Source: an uncultured cyanobacterium (GTDB taxonomy: Bacteria > Cyanobacteriota > Cyanobacteriia > CACIAM-69d). From it: a DNA stretch of 64,000 bases. The position numbers and the translations under genes were made by a program. The notes below the pieces were generated by a model. It was not told where the DNA came from and made no database searches. It saw only the letters and a list, made by a program, of their open reading frames with translations. Positions 62,216-63,421 of the stretch are shown here, piece after piece (position 1 is the stretch's first letter; each line of letters opens with the position of its first letter). The stretch spans positions 1-64,000 of the forward strand of contig CALGDE010000101.1 of the NCBI GenBank assembly GCA_937883785.1, written 5' to 3'.

Positions 62216-62572
62216 ATGAAACTGCGCTCAATTGAGACCACCCCTAGCCCAAATTGCATGAAGCTCAATCTGGATGCCCCAGTGAGTGCCAAGGCGATTA
62301 CCCTCAACCAGACACGCGACAAAGCGGCAGATAGCGACTCCCCCGCAACACCAGCCTTTGCCCAAGAATTAATGGCGATCGCGGGAGTGAAATCCGTTTT
62401 TATTATGGGCGATTTTATTACCTTGACCCGCCGAGGCAACGTAGACTGGCAGCCGATTCTAACGGCAGCGGGCAACTTGATTGGTCTATCCGATGCCGCC
62501 GATCCAACCCTTGCCCAAAGCATTACTGCACCCGAGCCAAGCAAAGACCCTAAAACAGCAGCGCCGGCGTAA
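62216..62572 (+). CDS. Nfu/NifU N-terminal domain protein (N-terminal half of CvfC-like)
   Basis: 119 residues. RSIETTPSPNCMKLNLD and AIAGVKSVFIMGDFITLTR are typical of the Nfu N-terminal (scaffold) domain. Staphylococcal CvfC-type proteins carry this domain fused to HEAT repeats; the next gene encodes exactly the HEAT half and is in the same frame, separated by a TAA at 62570-62572 and four sense codons. The C-terminal tail here (SDAADPTLAQSITAPEPSKD) is linker-like. The ATG at 62216 is preferred over TTG 62183. Confidence 0.8.
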   Translation: MKLRSIETTPSPNCMKLNLDAPVSAKAITLNQTRDKAADSDSPATPAFAQELMAIAGVKSVFIMGDFITLTRRGNVDWQPILTAAGNLIGLSDAADPTLAQSITAPEPSKDPKTAAPA

Positions 62573-62596
62573 AATTTTGGGCAGGTGGAAGTGGCG

Positions 62597-63421
62597 GTGC
62601 AGATGTTTCGGGAAATTCCGGTGCAGGTGAAAGCAACGGCGGGGTCGGGGGAACAGTCTCGGGTAGCGCTGCCGGAGCGATTTTCCCAGGCATTGCAGCG
62701 GGCGATCGCGGCGACGGGGGCGGACTACGTGGCAGAGCGGCGTTGGGCACCGTACCAACCGCAGTTTGGTGACGCAGCGGAGATTGCCCAACAGGTCGCC
62801 GATGAGCTGGTGGCGCTAATCAGTGAGCAGGATTTAACTCAGCTTGAGCAACGGTCCATTGATTCTGCGCAGGCAAAAGGAACGTCAGCATCGGCATTGT
62901 CCCAGCAAAAGTTATCGGCAGATCTACAGCATTCTGACTGGAAGCGTCGCCTCAAAGCGGTTCAGGAAGTTGAGGTGGATGACGATAACTTTGCCACTGT
63001 CGTGACTCTGCTCAAGGATGAAAAGGTGGCGATTCGACGTTGGGCGGCAGCGCTGTTGGGATCCAGTGAATGTGCTGAAGCGATTCCGCCATTGTGTGAG
63101 ATGTTGCATGGCGATCGGTCGGCGATCGTCCGGCGTACGGCAGGGGATGCGCTGAGTGATTTGGGTGATCCCCAGGCGGGTGAGGCGATGATTACATCCC
63201 TGCAAGATAATTCCAGTTTGGTACGGTGGCGAGCCAGTCGATTTTTAACGGAGCTGGGGGATGAAACCGCTGTGGAGCCTCTGATGCAGGCGCTGGAGAC
63301 TGAGGCTGAGTTTGATGTGCAGGTGGAAATGCAGGCGGCGATCGAGCGAATTCAGTCTGGGGGAGAGGTACAGCTGCCGATGTGGGTGCGCATTAGCCAA
63401 GGCGCGAGTTGTGATGAGTAG
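62597..63421 (+). CDS. HEAT-repeat protein (C-terminal half of CvfC-like)
   Basis: About 275 residues. FREIPVQVKATAG and VALPERFSQALQRAI match the mid-region of CvfC proteins; HEAT/PBS-lyase-like repeats follow (SDWKRRLKAVQEVEVDDDN; VAIRRWAAALLGSSECAEA; IVRRTAGDALSDLGDPQAGEA; LVRWRASRFLTELGDETAVE). In-frame with the upstream Nfu-N gene apart from one TAA. Start candidates are GTG 62585, GTG 62597 (AGGTGGA seven bases upstream) and ATG 62603; the middle one is listed. Role unknown; assembly or iron-sulfur related by association. Confidence 0.82.
   Translation: MQMFREIPVQVKATAGSGEQSRVALPERFSQALQRAIAATGADYVAERRWAPYQPQFGDAAEIAQQVADELVALISEQDLTQLEQRSIDSAQAKGTSASALSQQKLSADLQHSDWKRRLKAVQEVEVDDDNFATVVTLLKDEKVAIRRWAAALLGSSECAEAIPPLCEMLHGDRSAIVRRTAGDALSDLGDPQAGEAMITSLQDNSSLVRWRASRFLTELGDETAVEPLMQALETEAEFDVQVEMQAAIERIQSGGEVQLPMWVRISQGASCDE

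What the first reader, a model, noticed from the sequence alone, without database searches (positions are those of the whole stretch)
62216..63421. CvfC-like protein divided by one in-frame TAA
The Nfu-N gene and the HEAT-repeat gene are in the same frame, separated only by TAA (62570-62572) and four sense codons. In the CvfC family I know from Gram-positive bacteria they form one protein. The split could be gene fission, stop readthrough, or a recent null mutation. AGGTGGA before GTG 62597 suggests the second half can be translated alone.
Basis: partly seen in the sequence, partly recalled or inferred. Interest (0 to 1): 0.6.

Follow-up and report, generated by a model that had tools for sequence, protein, structure and literature searches.

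The report
Two-domain CvfC gene split by stop
A gene that makes one two-part protein in nearly all related cyanobacteria has here been cut in two by a single-letter change to a stop codon in the floppy linker between the parts; both parts look intact, so it is a modest, probably recent gene split rather than a new kind of system.

Summary
Nfu_N (62216-62572) and Virulence_fact+HEAT (62585-63421) lie in one frame, parted by TAA 62570-62572 and four sense codons. The ancestral state is fused. Of 32 cyanobacterial genomes found with the Virulence_fact domain, 29 have one frame of at least 389 codons; the exceptions are this genome, its same-genus MAG, and Oscillatoria CS-180, with a frameshift in the same linker. 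The closest intact relative (82% identity, L068) reads CAA where the window reads TAA, so one C-to-T change suffices. The stop falls in a linker predicted to be disordered, leaving each domain whole. Neither half shows relaxed constraint, but a null from roughly the last tenth of the branch would escape notice. The Shine-Dalgarno-like AGGTGG before GTG 62591/62597 is inherited codon sequence, also seen in an intact homologue. The same-genus MAG has a different in-frame stop, but 3 of its 17 control genes, pcrA and prfC included, also carry stops, so I discount it. Best reading: recent linker fission, probably still giving two proteins. A recent partial null or base-call error is not excluded. 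Low novelty.

The parts
62216..62572 (+). N half: stand-alone Nfu_N protein, 118 aa, ending in TAA
   Evidence: Pfam PF08712 residues 6-87, 63.6 bits; nearest solved structures are the stand-alone Nfu_N proteins SAV1430 (1pqx/2ffm) and SeR13 (2k1h)
62570..62572 (+). TAA that splits the ancestral frame (CAA in L068 and G001; codon 119)
   Evidence: codon alignment
62477..62584 (+). inter-domain linker, codons 88-123; predicted disordered around the stop
   Evidence: AlphaFold pLDDT below 50 at residues 106-120; most variable part of the gene
62583..62589 (+). AGGTGGA, Shine-Dalgarno-like, inherited from Gln-Val-Glu codons
   Evidence: duplex with 16S tail -11.1 kcal/mol, strongest of 31 orthologues compared; 2% of 781 internal in-frame ATG/GTG in the window's genes do as well
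62585..63421 (+). C half: Virulence_fact (PF13769) plus HEAT repeats; possible starts GTG 62585, 62591, 62597 or ATG 62603
   Evidence: PF13769 82.7 bits, HEAT_2 76.4 bits

Best explanation
An ancestrally fused CvfC-like gene (Nfu_N - disordered linker - Virulence_fact - HEAT) was divided in this lineage by a single CAA-to-TAA change in the linker. Shown: the fused ancestral state, the position of the stop in the linker, the completeness of both halves, and no detectable loss of constraint in either half. Inferred: one mRNA is translated into two proteins. Ribosomes ending at TAA 62570-62572 would re-initiate, or new ones would start, at GTG 62591 or 62597, 18-24 bases downstream, helped by the codon-derived AGGTGG. 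The halves would then act as separate polypeptides that may associate.
For: 29 of 32 genomes with PF13769 are fused, and L068, 82% identical, is intact with CAA there. The stop lies between domains, in a stretch with pLDDT below 50, while most of the domains score 85-98; pTM is 0.47, so the domains are not rigidly placed in the model. Stand-alone Nfu_N proteins of similar length have solved structures. Lineage-specific N:S changes are 9:17 (Nfu_N) and 18:43 (C half) for the window, against 9:12 and 21:44 for the intact L068; the upper 95% bound on the neutral share of the branch is about 0.09 for both halves together. Both indels in the window are whole codons. The window's Shine-Dalgarno-like duplex is the strongest of 31 orthologues. 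The same linker is interrupted independently in Oscillatoria CS-180, also leaving both halves open. No second copy in the genome.
Against: No expression, ribosome or protein data. The AGGTGG is pre-existing codon sequence, present in unsplit L069, so it is not an adaptation. The selection data allow the stop to be very young. The family is present in only about 8% of sampled cyanobacterial genomes, absent from the other four genomes of the order, and decayed in an Aliterella MAG, so it is dispensable and nulls are expected.
Confidence: 0.52

Rival explanations
1. Recent null or partial-null mutation: the TAA truncates the protein to its Nfu_N part, the C half is made little or not at all, and the gene is at the start of decay.
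For: Single substitution; dispensable, patchy family; decayed relative in an Aliterella MAG; selection analysis cannot see a lesion from the last ~10% of the branch; the start options for the C half are GTG or a more distant ATG.
Against: Lesion lies in the linker (about 10% of the gene between Pfam domains) and not in a domain; no second lesion; both halves constrained as in the intact relative.
Confidence: 0.3
2. Base-call or assembly error: the organism has CAA and one fused protein.
For: A single C/T difference; reads could not be examined; the same-genus MAG shows that such artefacts probably occur in public assemblies.
Against: The genome is near complete with low contamination (99.99%, 0.44%), and none of the 17 window genes compared with the same-genus MAG has an in-frame stop inside it.
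Confidence: 0.13
3. Stop-codon readthrough or reassignment gives a fused protein as well.
For: Same frame on both sides; no frameshift.
Against: TAA ends 25 of 45 window ORFs and long conserved genes such as dnaE (1190 aa) contain none; no relative has a stop at this position, so there is no conserved recoding signal.
Confidence: 0.05

Closest known systems
CvfC family (S. aureus conserved virulence factor C; Bacillus subtilis is the one control genome with PF13769)
   Same: Nfu_N, Virulence_fact (PF13769) and HEAT domains in the same order (domain order of the Gram-positive members from my own knowledge; PF13769 in B. subtilis)
   Different: Split by TAA in the linker; cyanobacterial; the S. 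aureus operon and thyA context (cited in PMC13009471) is not seen here
Stand-alone Nfu_N proteins (SAV1430, 1pqx/2ffm; SeR13, 2k1h)
   Same: The N half alone corresponds to these in sequence and fold
   Different: Here the C-terminal partner follows in the same frame 12 bases later
Translationally coupled adjacent genes in prokaryotes (PMC3711429)
   Same: Downstream start close to the upstream stop, downstream domain complete
   Different: Here only one lineage and one in-frame substitution; coupling not tested

Membership tests
CvfC-like (Nfu_N + Virulence_fact + HEAT) | Nfu_N domain at the N terminus | tested here: met
   PF08712, 63.6 bits against cut-off 27
CvfC-like (Nfu_N + Virulence_fact + HEAT) | PF13769 Virulence_fact followed by HEAT repeats | tested here: met
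   82.7 and 76.4 bits
CvfC-like (Nfu_N + Virulence_fact + HEAT) | all domains on one polypeptide | tested here: not met
   TAA at 62570-62572; fused in 29 of 32 cyanobacterial genomes
Two-gene bicistron by fission | both halves complete and under constraint | tested here: met
   Pfam coverage; N:S counts
Two-gene bicistron by fission | downstream half translated on its own | not testable with these tools
   Only a Shine-Dalgarno-like match, reached by 2% of internal sites
Pseudogene | relaxed constraint or multiple lesions | tested here: not met
   a recent lesion is still possible
Readthrough gene | stop conserved at the same position in relatives | tested here: not met
   CAA in L068 and G001, sense codons in all other orthologues

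The most novel reading that the evidence does not exclude
The linker of cyanobacterial CvfC-like genes is a recurrent fission point: stop or frameshift lesions arise independently there (window TAA, CS-180 frameshift, possibly the G001 TAG), and in the window's lineage the inherited QVE codons (CAG GTG GAA) supply a ready-made ribosome site, so the protein works equally well as two chains.
Probability: 0.2. Interest if true: 0.4.

Novelty: new variant of a known kind. Interest (0 to 1): 0.22.

Why it matters
If both halves are made, this is a fission caught soon after one substitution, with an intact near relative for comparison, and a natural test of whether the CvfC domains need to be covalently joined. 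If not, it is an ordinary broken gene. I found no described biochemical role for the CvfC family in cyanobacteria.

Tried and rejected
Genus-wide fission shared by the same-genus MAG G001: its TAG sits at another codon, and 3 of the 17 control genes of that MAG that I could compare also carry in-frame stops (pcrA in helicase motif VI, an aminotransferase, prfC), while a contig end carries Illumina adapter sequence, so I give its stop little weight. Stop reassignment in the genus: the residues opposite the G001 stops are E, L, N, N, with no pattern, and window stop usage is normal. The Shine-Dalgarno match as proof of a new start: rejected as proof, since it is inherited codon sequence and predicted strength at ordinary starts in this window is low. 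Laying the whole genome in the Python box was not available. Literature searches for YpgR/Nfu_N and for CvfC in cyanobacteria found nothing relevant.

Full report
Observation. The window carries an Nfu_N ORF (62216-62572, 118 aa, TAA) and, four sense codons later and in the same frame, an ORF with Virulence_fact (PF13769) and HEAT repeats (62585-63421). Translated straight through, the TAA is the only internal stop.

Ancestral state. In a sample of 390 cyanobacterial genomes 31 have PF13769; 28 of these have an open frame of at least 389 codons around it and three do not: this genome, the only other genome held for its genus (G001), and G082, which is Oscillatoria sp. CS-180. One more fused genome came from a family search, giving 29 of 32. 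Alignment shows that the long frames are the fused gene, Nfu_N included. Bacillus subtilis is the only one of 14 control genomes with the domain. The other four genomes of the order lack the gene.

How it was split. The closest intact gene, on a contig of MAG.87 (L068, 82% identity), has CAA at codon 119 where the window has TAA; G001 also has CAA there. One C-to-T change is enough. In CS-180 the linker carries what looks like one extra T in a run of four (GATTTTGGGC), which puts the two halves in different, overlapping frames (the single inserted base is my inference from comparison with relatives such as L042). In the tree of C halves the CS-180 gene lies well apart from the window/G001/L068 clade, and its nearest neighbours are intact, so that lesion is independent.

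The same-genus MAG. G001 has a TAG at alignment column 88, at the end of Nfu_N (L031 1505-1507). I tested that genome's reliability by comparing other window genes with their G001 counterparts: 3 of 17 (pcrA, an aminotransferase, prfC) also contain one in-frame stop in G001, two of them in highly conserved genes and with unlikely neighbouring residues in pcrA. In the reverse comparison none of these window genes has a stop inside its own frame; the few 'stops' listed lie upstream of the start codon or in shadow frames. I therefore treat the TAG in G001 as unreliable and do not count it as a second fission.

Consequences for the protein. AlphaFold2 on the read-through sequence with 22 homologues (mean pLDDT 85.4, pTM 0.47) gives Nfu_N to about residue 104, a stretch of pLDDT below 50 at 106-120, then the beta/alpha Virulence_fact domain and HEAT helices with pLDDT up to 98. 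The stop is residue 119. The Nfu_N part matches the stand-alone protein SAV1430 (2ffm, TM 0.84 by its length), which is the best sequence match in the PDB too. So the split leaves two whole folded units.

Selection. Window, G001 and L068 are about equally distant (dS 0.74-0.89; dN/dS 0.11-0.12 over the whole gene). Changes specific to the window lineage are 9 N:17 S in Nfu_N and 18 N:43 S in the C half; in intact L068 they are 9:12 and 21:44. If a share f of the window branch had evolved neutrally, its 95% upper bound is about 0.07-0.09 for both halves together. This excludes an old pseudogene but not a young null. The linker itself has more N changes in the window (14:5), but the numbers are small and linkers vary in intact pairs too.

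Translation of the C half. AGGTGGA at 62583-62589 precedes GTG 62591 (3 bases after AGGTG), GTG 62597 (9 bases) and ATG 62603 (15 bases). Its duplex with the 16S tail (consensus tail assumed; the genome's own 16S was not read) is -11.1 kcal/mol, the strongest among 31 orthologues, and only 2% of 781 internal in-frame ATG/GTG in window genes reach it. The motif is Gln-Val-Glu coding sequence and occurs in the fused L069, so it is a lucky inheritance, not an adaptation. Coupled re-initiation close to a stop is known in prokaryotes (PMC3711429). No expression evidence is available here.

Verdict. Most probably a real and rather young interruption that gives two proteins, possibly a partial null, less probably a base-call error; readthrough is unlikely. 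The case is modest: gene fission by one stop in a linker is a known kind of event.

Noticed in passing
L088, L086, L085 (G001 C583, C219, C189); L032:1-50: Same-genus MAG (TPA_asm SRR3401492_bin.38) carries in-frame stops in pcrA (TAA), an aminotransferase (TAA) and prfC (TAG), and an Illumina adapter plus inverted fold-back at a contig end. Probably assembly or sequence errors; the residues opposite the stops show no pattern.
   Followed up: partly
L080:4001-5183 (= L060): Oscillatoria sp. CS-180 carries the CvfC-like gene with a frameshift in the same inter-domain linker; both halves open, in overlapping frames.
   Followed up: partly
L081:3992-4693: Uncultured Aliterella MAG holds a decayed CvfC-like remnant: frameshifts, an in-frame TAG and loss of the rest after the start of the second domain.
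   Followed up: partly
L068 (JAKSDM010000166.1): MAG.87 is placed in another family (f13; 7.7 Mb, 1840 contigs, 5% contamination) yet its CvfC gene is 82% identical to the window's: either a misbinned contig from the window's genus or transfer.
   Followed up: no
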